DNA of 64,000 bases. It comes from Gracilinema caldarium DSM 7334 (lineage in GTDB: Bacteria; Spirochaetota; Spirochaetia; Treponematales; Breznakiellaceae). Below, piece by piece: positions 1-12,447 of this stretch (position 1 is the first letter of the stretch; each line of letters starts with the position of its first letter). A program made the translations under genes and the position numbers. The notes beneath the pieces are model-generated. The model was not told the DNA's origin. It saw only the letters and a program-made list of their open reading frames with translations, and made no database searches. Where the stretch lies: assembly GCF_000219725.1 (NCBI RefSeq), contig NC_015732.1:992001-1056000 (forward strand), given 5' to 3'.

Positions 1-852
1 GCAAAAAAATTCGCGTCGGAAATTGGCTATCCTGTTGTTGTAAAGCCTTCTAATGATTCTGGAAGTCGTAACGTGTTTTGTTGCCGAAATGAAATTGAAC
101 TACTAGAGGCATTTAATATTATTACCAATGCTAAAGTAAATCAAGTAAATGAAGAACTTGATACAGATATTCTGGTAGAAGAATTTTTAGTTGGTCCAGA
201 ATATAGCGTGGAAGCTGGAACTGATGATGAAAAAACGGTTATATATTCTATTACCGCTAAGATTACAACTCCTCTTCCTTATGCTGTAGAGATTGGTCAT
301 TTAAGTCCTGCAAAATTAGATCCGCTTATAAAGCAACAAATGGAGGATTTGGTTATGCAGGCCATAGATGCTCTAGGTCTTAGAAGATGTGTAACACATA
401 CGGAAATCAAACTTACGCCTAAGGGGCCAAGGATTGTGGAAGTTAATGCTCGCCCGGGAGGTGATGAAATACCACGACTTGTACAGCTTACTACAGGTTA
501 CGATATTCGTCAGATTGCACTTTACTTGGCTTTAGGATATAGTCTTGAGGAAATGCCTCGTGATTCCGTTGTGGCAAGATCAGCAGCTATTCGGTTTTTT
601 GTTAGTGATAGGGATGGTGAAGTTATGATATCTTATCCTAACAATATAAAAGATAATAATAACGTTGTGGAGTTGGAGTTTTATGTTCGTTCTGGTGACT
701 GTGTTGCGAAAACGGTCGATAATTTCTCTCGTTTGGGTCATATTATTTGTTATGACCCAGAGGGTGAGATGGTAGATCAGCTTATTGATGCTTTAGTTGA
801 ACAAGTGCAAATTACTATAAATCCAAAAGAAAGAGGAGGATGTATATGTTAA
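1..852 (+). CDS. ATP-grasp domain ligase, 5' end outside window
   Basis: The reading frame is open from the first base, so the gene is truncated by the window edge and its start is not visible. The visible part reads as the C-terminal two thirds of an ATP-grasp enzyme. The glycine-rich nucleotide-binding strand (GYPVVVKPSNDSGSRNV) comes first, and a Mg/ATP-binding EVNARPGGDEIPRL motif follows about 130 residues later. This resembles carboxylate-amine ligases and carbamoyl-phosphate-synthetase-like folds. The substrate cannot be told. The protein ends in Gly-Gly-Cys-Ile-Cys, an unusual cysteine tail. The next gene starts inside its last codons, so the two are probably translationally coupled. 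Confidence 0.85.
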   Translation, partial: AKKFASEIGYPVVVKPSNDSGSRNVFCCRNEIELLEAFNIITNAKVNQVNEELDTDILVEEFLVGPEYSVEAGTDDEKTVIYSITAKITTPLPYAVEIGHLSPAKLDPLIKQQMEDLVMQAIDALGLRRCVTHTEIKLTPKGPRIVEVNARPGGDEIPRLVQLTTGYDIRQIALYLALGYSLEEMPRDSVVARSAAIRFFVSDRDGEVMISYPNNIKDNNNVVELEFYVRSGDCVAKTVDNFSRLGHIICYDPEGEMVDQLIDALVEQVQITINPKERGGCIC

Positions 853-1160
853 ATTTTATCTCACAATTGGAAAAAAGTTTTGCTGAATTTATTTCGGAAG
901 CCTATCAAAACCAAACTCTTTGTAATAAAAGTAAGGTGATAGTGCTTTTGACATTTGCTCTTTCAGAAGAAAATCCAGAACTTGTAAAAGAGGGTCTTAT
1001 AAAAGCAAAACAAGAAGGATTGACCAATGAAGAGATTGCACAAATTGAAGCAATAGTAATTGCATTGAAAGGCCGAAAAATTGTACATCTTCTGACAACA
1101 GGTTCTACAAAGCCTGGAAGTAACGAAGGGACGAACAAAAGTTCATGTTGCTGTCAATAA
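846..1160 (+). CDS. Small AhpD/carboxymuconolactone-decarboxylase-like protein with Cys-rich tail
   Basis: About 104 residues, all helical in appearance. The pattern of a conserved Lys near the start of the helical core, a KEGL..AKQEGLTNEEIAQ segment and a following hydrophobic helix matches the CMD/AhpD fold, but the usual CxxC catalytic pair is absent. The C-terminus is Ser-Ser-Cys-Cys-Cys-Gln. An ATG at 840 is also in frame, but the AGGAGG at 834-839 directly abuts it; the ATG at 846 has a normal 6-base spacing and is preferred. It overlaps the end of the ATP-grasp gene. The function is unknown; the tail suggests thiol chemistry or soft-metal binding (inference). Confidence 0.6.
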   Translation: MLNFISQLEKSFAEFISEAYQNQTLCNKSKVIVLLTFALSEENPELVKEGLIKAKQEGLTNEEIAQIEAIVIALKGRKIVHLLTTGSTKPGSNEGTNKSSCCCQ

Positions 1161-1298
1161 TGAGGAATAGAGTTACCAGACTACTTTTTAATCAAGATAT
1201 TGAAGTGAATGTTGCATATAAATTATAGGGTACTTCTAGAAATTTCAGTTTTAAGAGGTTAACTTAGTTTATATGCGAAATCCTGATAAGATTTGCTT

Positions 1299-1341
1299 AG
1301 GCGCTTCTAAAAATTTAACAGAGTTTTTAGAGGCGCTTTAT
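1299..1341 (+). terminator. Rho-independent terminator-like hairpin
   Basis: A 13-base stem (1301-1313 with 1324-1336, containing G-U pairs) with an A-rich and T-rich arm lies between the small CMD-like gene and the permease gene. A weaker related sequence (cttctagaaattt) lies about 70 bases upstream. The rest of the 1161-1477 gap shows no gene. Confidence 0.55.
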
Positions 1342-1477
1342 ACTGTTGTGCAACGTTAAATGAAAAAATAAAATATTGAGATTATGTTATTTTCATAAAA
1401 GGCATTTAAATGATGAATGTATTAAGGGATATGTTACTGATTTTTTTAAGTTAATGTTTAAGAAGAGAGGGAAAAAT

Positions 1478-2749
1478 ATGAGTGTAGCTGCTATTTTTTA
1501 TGAACTACTCAGAATAGGGCAGTTTATTTGGGATTCATTTATGCACATCTGGTGGCTACTCTTAATTACCATTCCTTTGGCGGTGTGGGTAAATATCAGC
1601 GACTTTGGAAAGTATGTAAAAAAACTAACAAATTACAACGTTTTTTTGTCAATATTTTTTGGTACTGTTATTGGAGCATTTAGCCCATTTTGCTCATGTA
1701 GTGTTATACCCGTAATTACTTCTTTTTTAATAACAGGTGCTCCACTTGCCGCTGTAATGTCTTTCTGGATTGCTTCGCCATCAATGGATCCAGAAATCTT
1801 TTTTCTTAGTGTTGCATCACTTGGTTGGCCGCTTGCTTTTGCAAGATTAGTTGCTACTTTCTTCTTAAGTCTTGGTGGAGGATTAATAACACACTTTTTT
1901 ATTTCAAAAGGATGGATAGGTAACGACTATCTCAAGCTCAAAAGTAAGCCGCAGCATACTGTCTATTCTTTACGAAATCTAAAAGAAAGGATAAAATCGA
2001 TTTTGTATAAATTATCCAATACAAAGACACAACAAATCTCCAACAGCAAAAATGCTTGCTGTGAAGAGGCTATACTTAACATAGAGGCTGTAAATGAAGA
2101 AATGAATCTTCTTGAGATTAATTTTGCAGCAAAACCACAGAAAGATTTTTCACAGCAAGAAAAAGCTAAGATATCATGTTGTTCGGAAATCAATATATCG
2201 CCTTATATTATTAATTTGGCCTCAGAACAAAAGCAAGAAACTAATTGTTGCTCAATCTCTAAAGTACAAGAAGTTGAATCATCTTGTTGTAACAATATGC
2301 TTTTGGATGAGAACAATAAAAGATTTACCTGGGAAGAATTTTGGAAAGAACTTATGAATGTTTTATGGATGGTGGGGAAATATCTCTTTATTGCCTATTT
2401 CTTGGAGGCAGTTATTTCATTTTATATACCTAAGGAATGGATTCAGAACCTGTTGGGATTTAGCAATCCTTTTTCTGTACTATATGCTACAATTCTTGGT
2501 GTTCCTCTCTATACCACAAATCTTACAGCGCTGGGGTTGATTGGAGGACTACTTGCGAAGAATATGAGTGGAGGAGCTGCTCTGGCCTTCTTGATTTCTG
2601 GGGCAACCACTACACTTCCTGCCATGTCCGCTGTATATGGAATTGTCTCGAAGCGTGTCTTTTTTATTTATTTAGGTATTATTGCGGTCGGTGCTATGTT
2701 CTTTGGTTATATATACCAAATAATAGAGATTATTTTGCTAAAGATGTAA
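1478..2749 (+). CDS. ArsP/DUF318-type permease with cysteine-pair linker
   Basis: A 423-residue membrane protein of the ArsP_1/DUF318 permease family, known for efflux of organoarsenicals or of Cu/Zn in some members. Two hydrophobic halves flank a soluble linker at roughly residues 150-310. The first half carries the family motif FCSCSVIP; the second ends in a run of membrane segments. The linker holds four or more Cys-Cys pairs (NACCEE, ISCCSE, TNCCSI, SSCCNN), plausibly metal or metalloid ligands. The start at 1478 is chosen because a purine-rich ribosome site (agagaggg) precedes it; a longer frame from 1376 has no such site. The substrate is not determined by sequence. Confidence 0.8.
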   Translation: MSVAAIFYELLRIGQFIWDSFMHIWWLLLITIPLAVWVNISDFGKYVKKLTNYNVFLSIFFGTVIGAFSPFCSCSVIPVITSFLITGAPLAAVMSFWIASPSMDPEIFFLSVASLGWPLAFARLVATFFLSLGGGLITHFFISKGWIGNDYLKLKSKPQHTVYSLRNLKERIKSILYKLSNTKTQQISNSKNACCEEAILNIEAVNEEMNLLEINFAAKPQKDFSQQEKAKISCCSEINISPYIINLASEQKQETNCCSISKVQEVESSCCNNMLLDENNKRFTWEEFWKELMNVLWMVGKYLFIAYFLEAVISFYIPKEWIQNLLGFSNPFSVLYATILGVPLYTTNLTALGLIGGLLAKNMSGGAALAFLISGATTTLPAMSAVYGIVSKRVFFIYLGIIAVGAMFFGYIYQIIEIILLKM

Positions 2750-2807
2750 TTGAATATTCCGGTCCAAATCTGCAACTCTATTAAGTTCTTGTTAGTACCA
2801 GATAGGT

Positions 2808-2849
2808 GGCAGGTTTCGGCCGGAATCCCTGACAGGTTTCATCGGAATA
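2808..2849. repeat. Tandem IS-end-like repeats
   Basis: Two copies of CAGGTTTC followed by CGGAAT lie 23 bases apart (from 2810 and from 2833). Multiple short repeats of this kind are typical of IS21-family element ends. No transposase is attached here, so this is probably a remnant. Confidence 0.4.
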
Positions 2850-2894
2850 CACATCTCTCTCTCGGTTAGGTTAATTAAAAAAATAAAAATGAAC

Positions 2895-2924
2895 TTGACA
2901 TATTTCAAAAATAGCTTTTATCCT
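2895..2924 (+). promoter_or_regulatory. Sigma-70 type promoter of the lipoprotein gene
   Basis: TTGACA at 2895-2900, a 17-base spacer and TTATCC at 2918-2923 (or TATCCT one base on). It lies about 75 bases upstream of the lipoprotein start. Confidence 0.6.
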
Positions 2925-2932
2925 AAAAGCAC

Positions 2933-2960
2933 AAAACCAAAAGCTGCAGCTTGGTTTTTT
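2933..2960 (+). terminator. Hairpin with T-run in the lipoprotein leader
   Basis: AAAACC (2933-2938) pairs with GGTTTT (2953-2958) around a self-complementary AAGCTGCAGCTT core, followed by more T. It sits between the promoter and the start codon, so it could act as an attenuator. It could also be a leftover terminator. Confidence 0.35.
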
Positions 2961-2997
2961 AAAATAATAGGCCTAAAAAAGTAACGGAGGTTATTGT

Positions 2998-4412
2998 ATG
3001 TACAAAGGGTTCTTTAAAACTCTGAAAAGGGTAATCGTTCTGTCTGTTTTCTTCCTTCCTTCTTTCCTTCCTTCCTTTTAGGAGCCTGTGCCTTTCCATT
3101 CAGTGGAGGCAGCCAGGGTGTAACACTTAATTCGGTATCTACCGAATTTCGAGAAATTGCGCAGAAAGGATATATGGGTGGTAGCGTAGTGTATAATCCT
3201 GAAGCTCCAGAAGCCGGGCATTTATATGCGGGCACTACACTTGCTATTCGGCTTGGTAAGATCCTTTCTAAAACCACCGGTGATGGCTCCCTGGTGTCGG
3301 AGGATAAGCCTGCTGAAGCGGAGTATGGAGTGCTTACCATCAATTCTATAAGTGAGCAAGCGCTTTCTTTGAGCGTCACCTTATATGATGCCAAGGGTGC
3401 CACCCTTGGGTCTGGGAATTATCAACTTGCTCGAAATGAAACGGTGGATATCAACGGGGATGGCAAGCCGGATTTGTTGTATGCCCCGCCGGTACAGAAA
3501 CGACCAGGTATGGAAAAAGCGGTATATCTGACCTTTGTCAGTAACCAGGAAGAAGGTTATACCAGTATGTTTTCCGTACTACCCGAGCAATATAACCGTG
3601 GGGTATATCCGAGCGGGATTATCGGGGTAAATCCAGCAGGTAAGTTTATTGTAAGCAAGTACGAAGGGGCCAGCGGAAGCCGCTCAATGGTGCGGGGCGT
3701 CGTTTATGGTGACTATGTGCTTGATACTACTACCGGTACGTACCAGCGGGTCATCCGTGCCAGTATGGGCCGGAGCGCTCGCATGCTCGATGAAGGGGAT
3801 CTGGAGAGTAGTCCTAGTGCCGACAGTTTTTATTTTGCAGAAACCGAATTTAACGAAATCATAACCCCCCTGGCATTGTATCAACAACTTCCGGTTAGTA
3901 TTCAAAGCCGTATTCAGGACCCTGTTAATGATAATACCAGTGCCCTTGCAGGGCTTAACCAACTGCTTAAGGAACGGGATTTAGTAAAAACGATAGCCCA
4001 GGATACGGGAGAAGTGCTGGATGCAGAGGTAGCCGCCTTTGTAGCCGATACCTCGGGTCTATCGGAATTGGAACTGGTCGCCCTGAATCGGCTGTATCTG
4101 GGCCACAAGTATCCCGATGTTTGTCCACAAAAGGATGGGGGCAGCAATGATATAACCGAGATACTGCCCCTCTTCAGTGTTACCTTAGGGTCTACAAGCG
4201 ATGATATAAGCTCTGAAACCAATCGGGCTGTATCATACAACGACTACAAAAGCCAGAAAGCCGCGTTACAGTCAAAGTTCGATTCGTATTATAAGGTGAC
4301 AATATTAAAAAGCAAATGTACTGATCTGTTGGAATTTATTAAAACAAGTACTAAAACAACCGATTATTTGTCTAATTTAGGCCTTGAATTAGGACTAAAA
4401 GGATCTTTTTGA
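2998..4412 (+). CDS. Lipoprotein with frame broken in CTTC repeat tract (probable phase-variable, OFF)
   Basis: A good ribosome site (ACGGAGG) and ATG at 2998 begin a signal peptide (MYKGFFKTLKRVIVLSVFF) that runs into a CTTC repeat tract and stops at 3079-3081. The open frame downstream (to 4412) is shifted by one, and read backwards it starts exactly with Leu-Gly-Ala-Cys, a lipobox. Adding one 4-base repeat unit joins the two into a ~470-residue lipoprotein. The mature part has a DINGDGKPDLLY segment like calcium-binding or FG-GAP repeats; no other family was recognised. The annotated frame after the tract would otherwise begin at ATG 3174. The last codons abut an IS256-type end, so the natural C-terminus may be lost. 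Confidence 0.7.
3051..3078 (+). repeat. Tetranucleotide CTTC repeat tract
   Basis: Seven consecutive 4-base units: CTTC x3, TTTC, CTTC x2, CTTT. The tract lies inside the signal-peptide coding region and is the point where the lipoprotein frame breaks. Gain of one unit or loss of two restores the frame. Confidence 0.85.
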
Positions 4413-4440
4413 GCCTATCCCTAAATTTGTGTAAACGGTA
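4413..4440. repeat. IS256-family terminal repeat (single end)
   Basis: The gcctatccctaaatttgtgt sequence just beyond the transposase stop resembles IS256-family ends. It begins within or next to the lipoprotein stop codon. The matching opposite end was not found. Confidence 0.45.
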
Positions 4441-4441
4441 A

Positions 4442-5203
4442 TTATCCTAGCGATACCCGATCGCCATAAAAGATGCTGAATTGATGCATTGCCATACCCC
4501 AGTCTCGGATAGGCATGGTCCATTTTTTAGAGATATGTTGTAATCCCATAAATACCAGCTTTAGCGCTGCATCGGTTGTGGGAAAGCTCAACCTGTTTTT
4601 AGTGATTCTTCGGATTGAGTAATTTAACGATTCAATCGCATTCGTGGTGTAGATCACTTTGCGTATTGGTTCCGGGTATTTAAAAAAGGGCACTACTTCT
4701 GCCCAACGCATTTTCCACGATCGAGCAATCATGGGGTACTTAGTATCCCACCGTTGGGCAAATTGAGTGAGTTCCTCTTCTGCTGCAGTTTCACTTGCCG
4801 CAGTGTAAATCTTTTTAAGGTCCGCAGCTACTGCTTTCTGGTCCTTATAGGGCACGTATTTCAACGAGTTACGCACCATGTGGACCATACAGAGTTGGAC
4901 TTCCGTTTTGGGGAATACCGTGGTAATCGCTTCAGGGAAGCCGCTTAAACCATCTACGGCTGCTATCAAAATATCCTGGATGCCCCGATTCTTAAGCTCA
5001 TTAAGCACCCGCAGCCAAAATGATGCTCCTTCAGCCTGGTCGATCCAAAGCCCTAAGAGCTCTTTTTTGCCCGTTATGGTGATACCTAGGGCCAGATATA
5101 GGGCTTTTTTAGCTACGTTCCCATCATCTCGGACATTGAGCACAATGGCGTCGAGAAACACGATGGGGTACAAGGAATCCAGGGTCCGGTTGAGTACCTG
5201 GCT
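4442..5203 (-). pseudogene. IS256-family transposase, 5'-truncated
   Basis: The frame encodes the C-terminal ~250 residues of a Mutator/IS256-type DDE transposase. YPIVFLDAI (first Asp), the IQDILIAAVDGLSGF segment (second Asp), LCMVHMVRNSLKYV and YTTNAIESLN (final Glu) are all present. Full-length members have ~400 residues, so the N-terminal part is missing. Going upstream, the frame meets a stop at 5204-5206 and no ATG start exists. The sequence there switches to a different transposase remnant. The copy is almost certainly inactive. Confidence 0.85.
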
Positions 5204-5351: not shown

Positions 5352-5493
5352 AACAACATCTCCTTAAAACAGGGTATGTCATCTATCTTGACTCATTCGG
5401 AATGTTAGAACGACGCCTGCGGCGCGAAACGAGAATAATCATGTTGCTTTATGAAATTTCATATAGTAAAATGCGCAATAAAGGATTAAGAAA

Positions 5494-5807
5494 ATGCTTT
5501 CAAGAAAAAGTAGTTTGACATTTTTCTTTCTTTTAATGAAAAGGATTTTCCTGTTTGCGGATGAAGAGTCCATTTTTGATTTTAGTATTATTACATTCTT
5601 TGGAATCAAGAATGGTTCAGTTAATGAGCTTGTATATGAAAATGAAAATAAAATAAGTAAACTGGTTTGGGATCAATCAATGTCTCTACAATTCGGGATT
5701 GATATTAATATTAGAATTTGGAGATTTTTTATAAAAACTTGATACGCTACTTCCATTCCAATAAAGAGTGGTTATCTTGAAGATTTTGATTATTTAACAT
5801 CAAGAAT
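5494..5807 (+). pseudogene. Degenerate omptin-like outer-membrane protein
   Basis: The first 82 codons give a signal-like N-terminus followed by GSVNELVYENENKISKLVWD, closely parallel to GRVEELVFQGEKQISRLLWD in the intact gene at 11476. An in-frame TGA at 5740-5742 interrupts it, but similarity continues in the same frame (ATSIPIKSGYLEDFDYL) until about 5805. There it is cut off by high-GC sequence. A start at 5494 has a weak purine-rich site upstream. It is a dead paralogue, broken by both a nonsense codon and an insertion. Confidence 0.75.
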
Positions 5808-5948: not shown

Positions 5949-6878
5949 CTAGAGCCGGAGCGTGAAGCTTACCCCCGTCGGGAGTACAGCGAAAGAAAGG
6001 GTACCCGCGCGGGTGTTACCTTCGCCAGGTGAAGCGTTGCCTGAGACCCCCGCCCTGCTTGCGCCGAGCCCCGGCAAGGCGAAGGCCGTCGCGTGAAGGG
6101 CGGGGACGAGCCAGCCGGAAAGCGTTCCCAGCGCGGCGCCCGCGAGAACGTCGGTGACGAAATGGTTTCCGCTCGCAACCCGGAGCGCGGCCACGGCGGA
6201 CGCGAGGGCGTAGGAGCCGGCGATGGCGGGAACTTTCCAGGGAGAATCGGCGTAATAGAGCGAGAACGCGCACGCGGTAAACCCCGCCGCGGTAAAGGCA
6301 AGCGCGGTGTGGCCCGACGGGAAGGACTGGCGGTAATCGCCGTTGCTGAGCTCGGCTTCCGGATACCCCGAATAATACATATAGGGCCGATACCGGGGCA
6401 GAAGGTTTTTCCCGAGCTCCTTCACGCCCCAGGTCAGGAGCATGGATTCCGCGTACATGACGCCGAGGGGAAACCAATCGTCCGAGGGAGCGGACAAAAG
6501 GACGGCGGGCGCGGCGAGCGCGGTCAGGGTAAACGCGGTGGAAATCGGATCGAGCGTCGCCGAAAAGGGCGCCATAAAGGGGCGGTCCAGGGGGTTCACC
6601 GAGCCGGGATCGAGGATTCCCGACGGGGGTAGCGGTTGACCGACCGATCGCTCGTACGCGAAGGCACCGGCGCCCAATAAAAGGCCGGTTCCGGCGAGAG
6701 CTCCGTCCACGGAAGTGGACAGGCGAAAGGCCGCCGGAGTGGCCGAAAGACCGGTCAGGGCCGAGAGGAGGCACGCGAGGGCGAGGGCCGCGGTTTTGCC
6801 CGAGCGATCCCGGGGCGCCTTCTGCGGCTGCCTGGGAGCGGCTCTGCCTCGACGACAGGCGGTTATCGCGCCGTTCAT
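5949..6878 (-). CDS. PAP2-family membrane phosphatase
   Basis: About 309 residues from the ATG at 6878. The three PAP2 acid-phosphatase motifs are present in order: KNLLPRYRP (KxxxxxxRP), SFPSGHT, and a final NHFVTDVLAG (HxxxD) preceded by an Arg. Several hydrophobic segments suggest a membrane enzyme removing phosphate from lipid phosphates or undecaprenyl pyrophosphate (family knowledge). The longer frame to 7022 overlaps the previous gene and is not needed. The start overlaps the stop of the upstream PAP2 gene by 4 bases (ATGA), indicating translational coupling. GC content is far above that of the flanking genes. Confidence 0.85.
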   Translation of the reverse strand: MNGAITACRRGRAAPRQPQKAPRDRSGKTAALALACLLSALTGLSATPAAFRLSTSVDGALAGTGLLLGAGAFAYERSVGQPLPPSGILDPGSVNPLDRPFMAPFSATLDPISTAFTLTALAAPAVLLSAPSDDWFPLGVMYAESMLLTWGVKELGKNLLPRYRPYMYYSGYPEAELSNGDYRQSFPSGHTALAFTAAGFTACAFSLYYADSPWKVPAIAGSYALASAVAALRVASGNHFVTDVLAGAALGTLSGWLVPALHATAFALPGLGASRAGVSGNASPGEGNTRAGTLSFAVLPTGVSFTLRL

Positions 6879-7498
6879 CGACTCACCCGCCCGCGCGAGA
6901 CACTGCCTCTGCGTTTCAAACGCCGGGTAAAACGGGAAACGGCTACCCGGGCGGCAAGGGCGCCGAGGAAGCCGACAGCAAACCCGGCGAGGATATCCGA
7001 GGGATAATGAACGAAAAGGCAACAGCGTGACGCGCCGATCGCCAAAGCGCCCAGGAGGGCCACAAGACCGACGCGCTTATGGCCCGCGAAAAAGAGGGCG
7101 GCAGCCGCGGCCATGGACACGGTCGCGTGCCCCGAGGGAAAGGAATATCCCGATTCCGGTGAAGAGCCCGCGAGGCGCCACCAATCGGCGAATAGGCCGA
7201 CTGCCTGAAACGGCCGTGGCCGCGCGACGAGCTCTTTAAGGGCGCCGGCGATACCGGCGGATACTAGCACCGCCCCGATTAGCATTACCCCGGCTTCCCT
7301 CGTCTTTTTAAACGGGAGGAGGGCGCTCCCCAAGAAAAGAAAGAGAATACCTTTCTCGGTCGCTAGGCCCAAAAAAGAGGAGAGTTCCGCGAGAGCCCCA
7401 GAATCCCTTACGGCTATCCCATGGAACAGGGACAATACAAATTGATCAAACGCGGACACGCCGTTGCCGATCGCGCCCGCCAGGCTTGAGATAATCAT
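6875..7498 (-). CDS. PAP2-family membrane phosphatase
   Basis: About 207 residues from the ATG at 7498, which has a good purine-rich site (agagagg) upstream; a longer frame from 7672 lacks support. PAP2 motifs are KELVARPRP, SFPSGHA and SRCCLFVHYPSDILAG. It is more compact than its downstream neighbour and has multiple membrane segments. The C-terminus is very Arg-rich. With the overlapping downstream PAP2 gene it forms a two-gene phosphatase unit inside the high-GC island, below an XRE regulator read in the same direction. Confidence 0.85.
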   Translation of the reverse strand: MIISSLAGAIGNGVSAFDQFVLSLFHGIAVRDSGALAELSSFLGLATEKGILFLFLGSALLPFKKTREAGVMLIGAVLVSAGIAGALKELVARPRPFQAVGLFADWWRLAGSSPESGYSFPSGHATVSMAAAAALFFAGHKRVGLVALLGALAIGASRCCLFVHYPSDILAGFAVGFLGALAARVAVSRFTRRLKRRGSVSRGRVSR

Positions 7499-7678
7499 GG
7501 TGACAAACCTCTCTCTAGAAAATCGTGTAGCGTTCCGGAAGCTCAGCGTGAGTATGCCGTTCAGAAAGCCCGTTTTCAAGAAACGATTCGTCACATTGGC
7601 GGGAATGGAGGGATATTCGCCGATACTTTTCGTGTCATCGGCCGTTTTTATGCGCGAAAAGGGGCAGGACAAGCCCGA

Positions 7679-8287
7679 TTAACGGTTTTCCAGCGCGATC
7701 AAGACGACTTTCGCGAGGAGCAGAACGAAGAGGAAGAAGGCCGCGTAGGGTTCCCGCGCCGCGATAAAGAGCGCGATCGCCGCGGAATGAAGCGCGAGTG
7801 AGCCGAAGCGCGCGAAACGGCGAAGCCTGCCGGAAAGCGAAACGGGGACGGCCAGCGCGGCCAAGCCCCACGCGCCCATGCTTCCCAGAGCGGCGAAAAA
7901 AGCGATTTTAAGCGCGCGCGCTTGGCTATATTCGAAAAGGCTCACGGTCGCGATATAATCGGCCCGGGGCTGGCTGAAAAAGGGCAAAAAGGCGAAACAG
8001 CAGGCGAGAAGGTCAAGAAGGCCGAAGGTCAGCGTTGACTGCCGCCCGACCCTCTCCCGGCCCTCGTTCTCGGCCGCGTCTAAAAGCTCTTTTCCGCTTA
8101 AAAGCTCGTCGAGTGAAACACCGAATACCTCCGAAAGGCGTTTCAGCGCCTCGATATTCGGCATTCCGCGCCCGCTTTCCCACTTCGAGACCGCCGTCCG
8201 CGAAATATTGAGCCGTTCGGACAGCTGCTCCTGGGTCATGCCGTTTTTTTTCCGCAACGTCTGCAATCGATCCTTGAATTCCATCAT
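7679..8287 (-). CDS. XRE-family regulator with membrane C-terminus
   Basis: 202 residues. Residues ~5-60 form a Cro/C1-type helix-turn-helix (LRKKNGMTQEQLSERLNISR, then TAVSKWESGRGMPNIEALK). The C-terminal ~110 residues contain four hydrophobic segments, so this is a membrane-tethered regulator. ATG at 8287 or 8284 both follow a gggag site. It lies upstream of the two PAP2 genes on the same strand with a ~180-base gap and may control them (inference). A 12-base C homopolymer lies about 50 bases upstream, where a promoter would be. Composition is high GC like the rest of the island. Confidence 0.8.
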   Translation of the reverse strand: MMEFKDRLQTLRKKNGMTQEQLSERLNISRTAVSKWESGRGMPNIEALKRLSEVFGVSLDELLSGKELLDAAENEGRERVGRQSTLTFGLLDLLACCFAFLPFFSQPRADYIATVSLFEYSQARALKIAFFAALGSMGAWGLAALAVPVSLSGRLRRFARFGSLALHSAAIALFIAAREPYAAFFLFVLLLAKVVLIALENR

Positions 8288-8335
8288 CCGCTCCCTGCCG
8301 CACGATGCGGTTCCCTTCGCCGGGGGGAAGGCCTT

Positions 8336-11212: not shown

Positions 11213-11479
11213 GCCGGGAATAGTTTTCCTCCATGGGTTCCGCTATTCCAATATGAGGGAAGCACAGGCCAAGCATCCGGCTGGATTCCTTGCGTTGTTA
11301 GTGCTTCAAGGCTGAATAAGGAGGGGAAGGCTCTAGCCGAAGTATACAATCATACCTATCAGGTGTTTGATAGCGGTGATCCGGTTGCTCTCGATGACGC
11401 TACTTTCTGTGCGGGGATTGTGTACACTATCGTGAATGTAACCCATATCCTAGAGTCGAGCACCTACTGGTATAAATGA
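11213..11479 (+). pseudogene. 3' fragment of an unidentified gene coupled to the omptin-like gene
   Basis: An 88-codon frame, open after a stop at 11210-11212, has good coding character (WVPLFQYEGS, then VVSASRLNKEGKALAEVYNH, then GDPVALDDATF). It ends with TGA overlapping the ATG of the omptin-like gene (ATGA at 11476-11479). No start or ribosome site is visible. It looks like the C-terminal part of a protein whose 5' end was lost when the intron and other mobile sequence arrived. The family was not recognised. Confidence 0.5.
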
Positions 11480-12447
11480 GAAGCTTGTTCAACGTAAAGT
11501 ATGCGAACCTGCTACTGTTAGTTGGTGTATGGAATACCATTGGTCCCATAGCTTCTTGCTTTCCCCTGGGAGGTATGGGACAATTCTCTTTTTCCAGTGA
11601 AACCAACACTGGAGTATCATGGGGGCGCGTAGAAGAGCTCGTTTTTCAGGGAGAGAAGCAGATTAGTCGCCTTTTATGGGATACCAATTGGGTTCCTCAT
11701 CTCGGTGTAAAAGGCACAGTCCGGTATAGGTGGTTTACAGGCACACTGGAGGCTGCTACTGCTTTTCCTGTCCGTTCTGGTGCTTTAGAAGATTTTGATT
11801 ATCTCCTTTCCGATGCGTCAAAGCCTAGCCACTATTCGTGGCACGAGGCCTATCTGGATAAGGATATGTTTTTTGGGACTTCCTGGGGAATACGTTTTCC
11901 CCTTGTTACTGGAATAGCGGTGGAATCCCAGTTAGGTTTTGCCTACCAGAATCGTAAGTGGACCGGCCAAAATGGGTATCTTCAGTATCCAGTGTCAGGT
12001 TACTGGACAGGGGCTGAAAGTAAGCAAATCCTTGCTGGTCCGGTAATCAGTTATGAACAATCCCTGTGGTATCCCCGGCTGGTGCTCGCTGTAAACTGGG
12101 GACTATCTGGAACTACAGGGCTATCTGTTGGGGGTAGCTGGATTCCCTATCTACACATACAGGCCCTTGATAACCACTTCCTCAGGGATCCTCCAATGCA
12201 GTTCTATGATCAATTACAGGACGGGAGCGGTTATAAGGGTGCAGTAAAGCTTGTAGTCAATTCTGAAGGGACGGCTAGAGGAGAAAAGACTTGCTATATG
12301 GGGCTTAAAGTACGTTCATTTTATGTGAAGGGTTCTACCGCAAGTCGTACTATAGGGTCTCCTGATGTCAATTTTGTCATGGACCCAGTATATAGTGCGG
12401 GTAGCCGGGAATTGATATGGCAATTTTCTGTAGGAATTCGGATGTGA
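11476..12447 (+). CDS. Omptin-like outer-membrane protein/protease
   Basis: 323 residues with an N-terminal hydrophobic export signal and then alternating beta-barrel-type strands. Resemblance to omptins (outer-membrane aspartyl-type endoproteases) rests on order and motifs. A WD..WVPHLGVKGTVRYRW strand comes first, then LEDFDYL where omptins have the paired catalytic Asp residues (D83/D85). Later ALDNHF matches the D-x-H catalytic dyad (D210/H212). The start overlaps the stop of the preceding gene fragment. A dead paralogue lies at 5494. Whether it is an active protease is not shown by sequence. Confidence 0.6.
   Translation: MRSLFNVKYANLLLLVGVWNTIGPIASCFPLGGMGQFSFSSETNTGVSWGRVEELVFQGEKQISRLLWDTNWVPHLGVKGTVRYRWFTGTLEAATAFPVRSGALEDFDYLLSDASKPSHYSWHEAYLDKDMFFGTSWGIRFPLVTGIAVESQLGFAYQNRKWTGQNGYLQYPVSGYWTGAESKQILAGPVISYEQSLWYPRLVLAVNWGLSGTTGLSVGGSWIPYLHIQALDNHFLRDPPMQFYDQLQDGSGYKGAVKLVVNSEGTARGEKTCYMGLKVRSFYVKGSTASRTIGSPDVNFVMDPVYSAGSRELIWQFSVGIRM

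What the first reader, a model, noticed from the sequence alone, without database searches (positions are those of the whole stretch)
2998..3120. Lipoprotein switched by a CTTC repeat tract inside its signal peptide
Seen directly: ATG 2998 with a good ribosome site opens a signal peptide that runs into seven CTTC-like units and stops. The downstream frame is off by one and starts at a perfect lipobox (LGAC). One extra unit (+4) or two fewer (-8) joins them. Slipped-strand phase variation is a known mechanism; this locus was not recognised.
Basis: partly seen in the sequence, partly recalled or inferred. Interest (0 to 1): 0.78.

Follow-up and report, generated by a model that had tools for sequence, protein, structure and literature searches.

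The report
Broken lipoprotein gene with repeat frameshift
A surface-lipoprotein gene in a harmless hot-spring spirochaete has been knocked out of frame by two extra CTTC repeats in its signal peptide, but it has also lost its last third and its neighbouring gene, so here it is most likely a dead relic of a repeat-prone gene and not a working on/off switch.

Summary
ATG 2998 opens a signal peptide that runs through a CTTC tract (3051-3077) into TAG 3079. The lipobox frame (LGAC, 3078-3089) is off by one, and +4 or -8 nt joins the two. The tract is the strongest tandem array in the window.

The genome is almost certainly Spirochaeta (Treponema) caldaria H1T, since its length matches exactly. The only close ortholog, in another genus (G018), is an intact 710-aa lipoprotein with a perfect 22-bp TTCC tract. 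It is exactly 8 nt shorter, in frame, with no other indel across 444 aligned residues. The lipobox Cys is invariant in nine aligned homologs. The frameshift is therefore real and equals two repeat units.

The switch interpretation fails for this strain. The gene is cut at codon ~470 of 710 by an IS256-family fragment, and its last 240 codons are absent from the genome. The next gene keeps only its last 55 codons. The tract is interrupted (perfect runs of 12 and 14 bp). A duplicate of the gene's 5' end, 5.5 kb upstream, has the same tract length and differs there by one substitution.

Best reading: a locked-off pseudogene of a formerly slippage-prone lipoprotein gene. An Opa-like switch may survive in G018's lineage; that is untested.

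The parts
2878..3229 (+). Downstream copy (B) of a 352-bp direct repeat holding promoter, RBS, signal peptide and the gene's first 232 bp; the other copy (A) is at genome 989361-989712, outside the window
   Evidence: 350/352 identical, no gaps; only these two copies in the genome
2895..2924 (+). Probable promoter TTGACA-18-TATCCT
   Evidence: Sequence; TTGACA also present at the same place in the G018 ortholog
2934..2957 (+). 5'-UTR inverted repeat AAACCA...TGGTTT
   Evidence: One compensatory change in G018 (AAGCCA...TGGCTT); folding of the longer segment is no better than shuffles, so only suggestive
2986..2990 (+). Ribosome-binding site GGAGG
   Evidence: Sequence; also present in G018
2998..3081 (+). 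Out-of-frame signal-peptide ORF, 27 aa, ending at TAG 3079
   Evidence: first 24 aa are 67% identical to the G018 signal peptide
3051..3077 (+). Interrupted CTTC tetranucleotide tract, 6.8 units
   Evidence: perfect runs 3051-3062 and 3064-3077; exactly 8 nt longer than in G018
3078..3089 (+). Lipobox LGAC (Cys codon 3087-3089)
   Evidence: Cys is an invariant column in 9 homologs
3078..4412 (+). Body of the lipoprotein gene in the other frame, 444 codons, truncated
   Evidence: 68% identical to G018 residues up to ~470 of 710; no stop inside
4410..5191 (-). IS256/Mutator-family transposase fragment that cuts the gene (about 783 bp of a ~1312-bp element)
   Evidence: PF00872 E=5.5e-74; two longer copies elsewhere in the genome
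5192..5396 (.). Second repeat fragment abutting the IS piece
   Evidence: 81% identical to genome 1762429-1762634
11312..11476 (+). Last 55 codons of the next gene of the operon (second lipoprotein), the rest missing
   Evidence: 60% identical to residues 230-284 of the G018 gene; the only match in the genome
11476..12447 (+). Homolog of the omptin-family outer-membrane protease gene that neighbours the ortholog in G018
   Evidence: 60% identical over 284 aa; the G018 protein hits PF01278 at E=1.1e-17

Best explanation
The locus is the 5' two thirds of a large spirochaete lipoprotein gene, now a pseudogene. The ancestral gene encoded part of the hydrophobic core of its signal peptide with a TTCC/CTTC tract. 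Replication slippage there left it two units (+8 nt) longer than the intact ortholog in G018. That put a TAG just before the lipobox and turned the gene off. An IS256-family insertion with deletion removed the 3' third and most of the next gene, and a 5.2-kb cargo segment became flanked by a duplicate of a 352-bp stretch holding the promoter and the gene's first 232 bp. Shown here: the frames, the 8-nt difference, the truncation and the duplication. Inferred: that slippage made the 8-nt difference, that the gene is not expressed, and the order of events.
For: The G018 ortholog is one open frame with a perfect 22-bp TTCC tract, 8 nt shorter. The protein alignment of the 444 downstream residues is ungapped against G018, so the tract is the only length change. 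The lipobox Cys is invariant in 9 homologs, and 27 of 29 order-wide homologs match a lipobox pattern. Pairwise dN 0.21 with saturated dS indicates long purifying selection on the downstream frame, so the gene was on for most of its history. The C-terminal 240 aa occur nowhere in the genome, only 55 codons of the next gene remain, and an IS fragment lies at the break. Both duplicate copies carry the same +8 tract length. The assembly is finished, 310x Illumina+454, with 80 annotated pseudogenes (PMC3739177).
Against: The remaining 444-codon frame has no stop and ends near a predicted domain boundary (low-confidence model), so a shortened lipoprotein could still be made if the frame were restored. 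The tract, though interrupted, could still slip at a low rate. With a single close ortholog, the direction of the length change (expansion here or contraction in G018) is not polarised.
Confidence: 0.76

Rival explanations
1. An active slipped-strand phase-variable switch in this strain: unit gain or loss toggles a shortened lipoprotein on and off.
For: A tetranucleotide tract in the signal peptide with frames arranged so that unit changes toggle expression; the ortholog is in the ON state with a different unit number; promoter and RBS are intact.
Against: The gene lacks its last 240 residues and its operon partner. Perfect runs are only 12 and 14 bp, below the five-unit cut-off. The two copies differ by a point change inside the tract and not in length.
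Confidence: 0.1
2. The tract is incidental: a low-complexity Phe/Leu/Ser/Pro hydrophobic core, and the frameshift is an ordinary indel in a pseudogene.
For: Signal peptides tolerate repetitive hydrophobic sequence (general knowledge); the gene is a pseudogene anyway.
Against: The indel is exactly two repeat units and lies at the tract. The tract is at the same site in both genera, although a 16-bp TTCC array occurs in only 6 of 200 family genomes, and only the G018 one lies in a lipoprotein signal peptide.
Confidence: 0.1
3. Sequencing or assembly error in the repeat.
For: The region lies in a 352-bp duplicate that short reads cannot span.
Against: An 8-nt error shared by both copies is unlikely. 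The copies are resolved by two differences, and the genome was finished with Illumina 283x and 454 27x, error rate under 1e-5 (PMC3739177).
Confidence: 0.02
4. The downstream frame is still translated, by reinitiation at ATG 3174 or by -1 frameshifting before TAG 3079.
For: An open frame of 412 codons from ATG 3174.
Against: Either the signal peptide is lost, unlike in the homologs checked, or a frameshift site is needed, and TCC TTT TAG is not a canonical slippery heptamer (general knowledge). The product is truncated in any case.
Confidence: 0.02

Closest known systems
Neisseria opa genes (CTCTT pentamer repeats in the leader-peptide coding sequence; PMC3745409)
   Same: Pyrimidine repeat inside the signal-peptide coding region of a surface protein; unit gain or loss moves the downstream frame in or out.
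   Different: Tetranucleotide, not pentamer; a lipoprotein, not an outer-membrane barrel protein; the tract here is short and interrupted; the gene is truncated; no variation among cells or isolates shown; no sequence homology tested or claimed.
Tetranucleotide-repeat contingency loci (PhasomeIt cut-off of five or more units; PMC5953494)
   Same: Intragenic tetranucleotide tract whose unit number sets the reading frame; the G018 ortholog (5.5 perfect units) passes the cut-off.
   Different: The window tract fails the cut-off (longest perfect runs 12 and 14 bp).
Large (~700-890 aa) Treponematales lipoprotein family, unnamed
   Same: 68% identical to the G018 member; shares the lipobox and the DINGDGKPD block.
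   Different: The window copy is frameshifted and lacks the C-terminal 240 residues.

Membership tests
Slipped-strand phase-variable (SSR contingency) locus | Intragenic repeat whose unit number sets the reading frame | tested here: met
   Frame arithmetic and G018 comparison
Slipped-strand phase-variable (SSR contingency) locus | Uninterrupted tract long enough to be hypermutable (five or more tetranucleotide units) | tested here: not met
   Perfect runs of 12 and 14 bp; cut-off from PMC5953494. Met in the G018 ortholog (22 bp)
Slipped-strand phase-variable (SSR contingency) locus | Intact gene to switch | tested here: not met
   3' third absent from the genome, IS fragment at the break
Slipped-strand phase-variable (SSR contingency) locus | Unit-number variation among cells or isolates | not testable with these tools
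   No reads or second isolate held; the one duplicate copy has the same length, the other genus differs by two units
Bacterial lipoprotein | Signal peptide followed by lipobox Cys | tested here: met
   Cys invariant in nine homologs; in the window it is reached only in the other frame
Pseudogene | Disabled relative to an intact ortholog | tested here: met
   Frameshift plus loss of the 3' third relative to G018
FG-GAP repeat protein | Pfam gathering score | tested here: not met
   PF01839 17.3 bits against a cut-off of 22.1

The most novel reading that the evidence does not exclude
The ortholog in the sister genus (G018) is a live Opa-style switch. A perfect TTCC tract in the signal peptide would let a spirochaete of that lineage stochastically turn a large surface lipoprotein (next to an omptin-type protease) on and off, and the H1T locus would be a fossil OFF state of that switch.
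Probability: 0.22. Interest if true: 0.5.

Novelty: new member of a known kind. Interest (0 to 1): 0.27.

Why it matters
It shows how a plausible switch read from one sequence can be a relic: comparison with one ortholog confirms the repeat-unit frameshift, while checking gene completeness removes the function. If the intact G018 ortholog proves variable, it would extend signal-peptide repeat switching to non-pathogenic spirochaetes, where I found no report in the held library.

Tried and rejected
The first genome-contig scan with the single protein found no relatives. The alignment scan found only distant ones, all without a tract. No perfect 16-bp CTTC array exists in this genome. The other TTCC arrays in the family do not lie in lipoprotein signal peptides. 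The AlphaFold model has low confidence (mean pLDDT 59) and its PDB matches have very low TM-scores (query-normalised below 0.1), so no fold or function was inferred. The 5'-UTR fold is no better than shuffles. FG-GAP matches fall below the gathering score. The gaps near the 3' end in the raw DNA alignment were judged alignment noise, because the protein alignment there is ungapped. GenBank annotation of the record was not held.

Full report
WHAT IS THERE. ATG 2998 follows GGAGG and opens MYKGFFKTLKRVIVLSVFFLPSFLPSF*, which ends at TAG 3079. The frame that starts at 3078 reads LGACAFPF... and is open to TGA 4410. The CTTC array at 3051-3077 has 6.8 copies at 91% match; as a 16-bp period at 3047-3077 it is the highest-scoring of the 25 TRF rows in the window. 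Unit changes of -2, +1 or +4 join the frames. The array is beyond chance for the window, and no perfect period-4 array of 13 bp or more occurs in 400 kb sampled from this genome. It is interrupted once, leaving perfect runs of 12 and 14 bp.

WHICH ORGANISM. The host genome is one contig of 3,239,340 bp. This is exactly the size published for Spirochaeta caldaria H1T (renamed Treponema caldaria; GenBank CP002868), finished with Illumina 283x and 454 27x and listing 80 pseudogenes (PMC3739177). The identification rests on length and on kinship to Treponema MAGs.

THE ORTHOLOG. Among 200 genomes of the family, only G018, in a different genus, has a close ortholog, 68% identical. It is one open frame of 710 aa from the corresponding ATG, with a signal peptide MYKRFFKALKGLMVLFISFLPSFLLGSC that contains a perfect 22-bp TTCC tract. 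Upstream elements are similar (TTGACA, GGAGG, a 5'-UTR inverted repeat). Between the ATG and the lipobox the two genes differ in length by exactly 8 nt, at the tract. Downstream, the 444 residues align without any gap. The window gene is thus two units longer and out of frame. With one ortholog, whether the change was a gain here or a loss in G018 cannot be polarised.

THE FAMILY. The protein belongs to a family of large lipoproteins found through the order (37 of 394 genomes at E 1e-8). The lipobox Cys is invariant in an alignment of nine. In a wider set of 29 N-termini, 27 match a simple lipobox pattern. One of the other two (L088) has a plausible lipobox by eye, and the other (L089) is cut by a contig edge. 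Apart from G018, none has a tetranucleotide tract in the signal peptide. Nei-Gojobori dN against G018 is 0.21 with saturated dS, so the downstream frame was long under purifying selection. That is expected for a gene that was usually on.

WHY IT IS NOT A WORKING SWITCH HERE. (a) The gene ends at codon ~470 of 710, where an IS256/Mutator-family fragment begins. A genome-wide search with the full ortholog finds nothing of the last 240 residues. (b) In G018 the next gene is a second lipoprotein. In this genome only its last 55 codons remain, at window 11312-11476, directly before the omptin-type neighbour. About 6.9 kb of IS and foreign DNA fills the gap. (c) The tract fails the cut-off of five or more units used to call tetranucleotide phase-variable tracts in Neisseria (PMC5953494). 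(d) A 352-bp segment containing promoter, signal peptide and tract exists twice, at genome 989361-989712 and 994878-995229, 350/352 identical. Both copies have the same tract length. One of the two differences is a C/T difference inside the tract, so since the duplication the tract has mutated by substitution and not by unit number. This is one observation and does not measure a rate.

MECHANISM. Most likely, replication slippage in a signal-peptide tract moved the gene out of frame. IS-mediated truncation and loss of the neighbouring gene then made the loss permanent, or came first and removed selection to stay in frame. The order of these events is not known, except that the +8 state is shared by both copies and so probably predates the duplication.

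COMPARISON WITH KNOWN SYSTEMS. The closest mechanism is Neisseria opa, where CTCTT repeats in the leader-peptide coding sequence switch the frame at about 1e-3 per cell per generation (PMC3745409). The window locus works like a frozen OFF allele of such a gene. It is not filed as a phase-variable locus because two defining features were tested and not met (hypermutable tract, intact gene). The novelty label 'new member of a known kind' therefore refers to a pseudogene made by a repeat-unit frameshift. The G018 ortholog does meet the tract cut-off and is the better candidate for a live switch; no read or isolate data were available to test it. Literature searches for phase variation together with Treponema or spirochetes returned reviews and T. 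pallidum work but no report on this locus.

LIMITS. No isolates or reads were available. The structure model was poor and gave no functional lead. Function of the lipoprotein remains unknown beyond membrane anchoring inferred from the lipobox.

Noticed in passing
window 1-2877 (genome 989713-994877, L003:4713-9877): A low-GC 5.2-kb cargo flanked by the 352-bp direct repeats, as left by a single-crossover (Campbell-type) integration of a circle. It encodes a DUF5714/MbdU-like protein, an ArsM-like methyltransferase, an ATP-grasp ligase, an MduS-like small protein and an ArsP/SaoE-like permease, several ending in or carrying Cys-Cys motifs. It looks like a cysteine version of the selenoprotein organometal (SAO/Mbd) gene sets.
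   Followed up: partly
L100 and L102 signal peptides (G303, G375): Two distant homologs have an in-frame G8 run in the n-region of the signal peptide (KKWGGYS), just below the usual G9 cut-off for poly-G phase variation.
   Followed up: no
window 5482-5796: A fragment 34% identical to the omptin-type neighbour gene, in addition to the 60% identical copy at 11584-12435: a second, degraded paralog.
   Followed up: no
window 5950-8300: A 62% G+C block with two PAP2-phosphatase-like ORFs and a helix-turn-helix regulator-like ORF (named by eye, not searched), in a 46% G+C genome: probably foreign DNA within the region that replaced the gene's 3' end.
   Followed up: no
window 2934-2957: A 5'-UTR inverted repeat with one compensatory change in G018; in the window it is followed by T6 and so resembles a terminator between promoter and gene.
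   Followed up: partly
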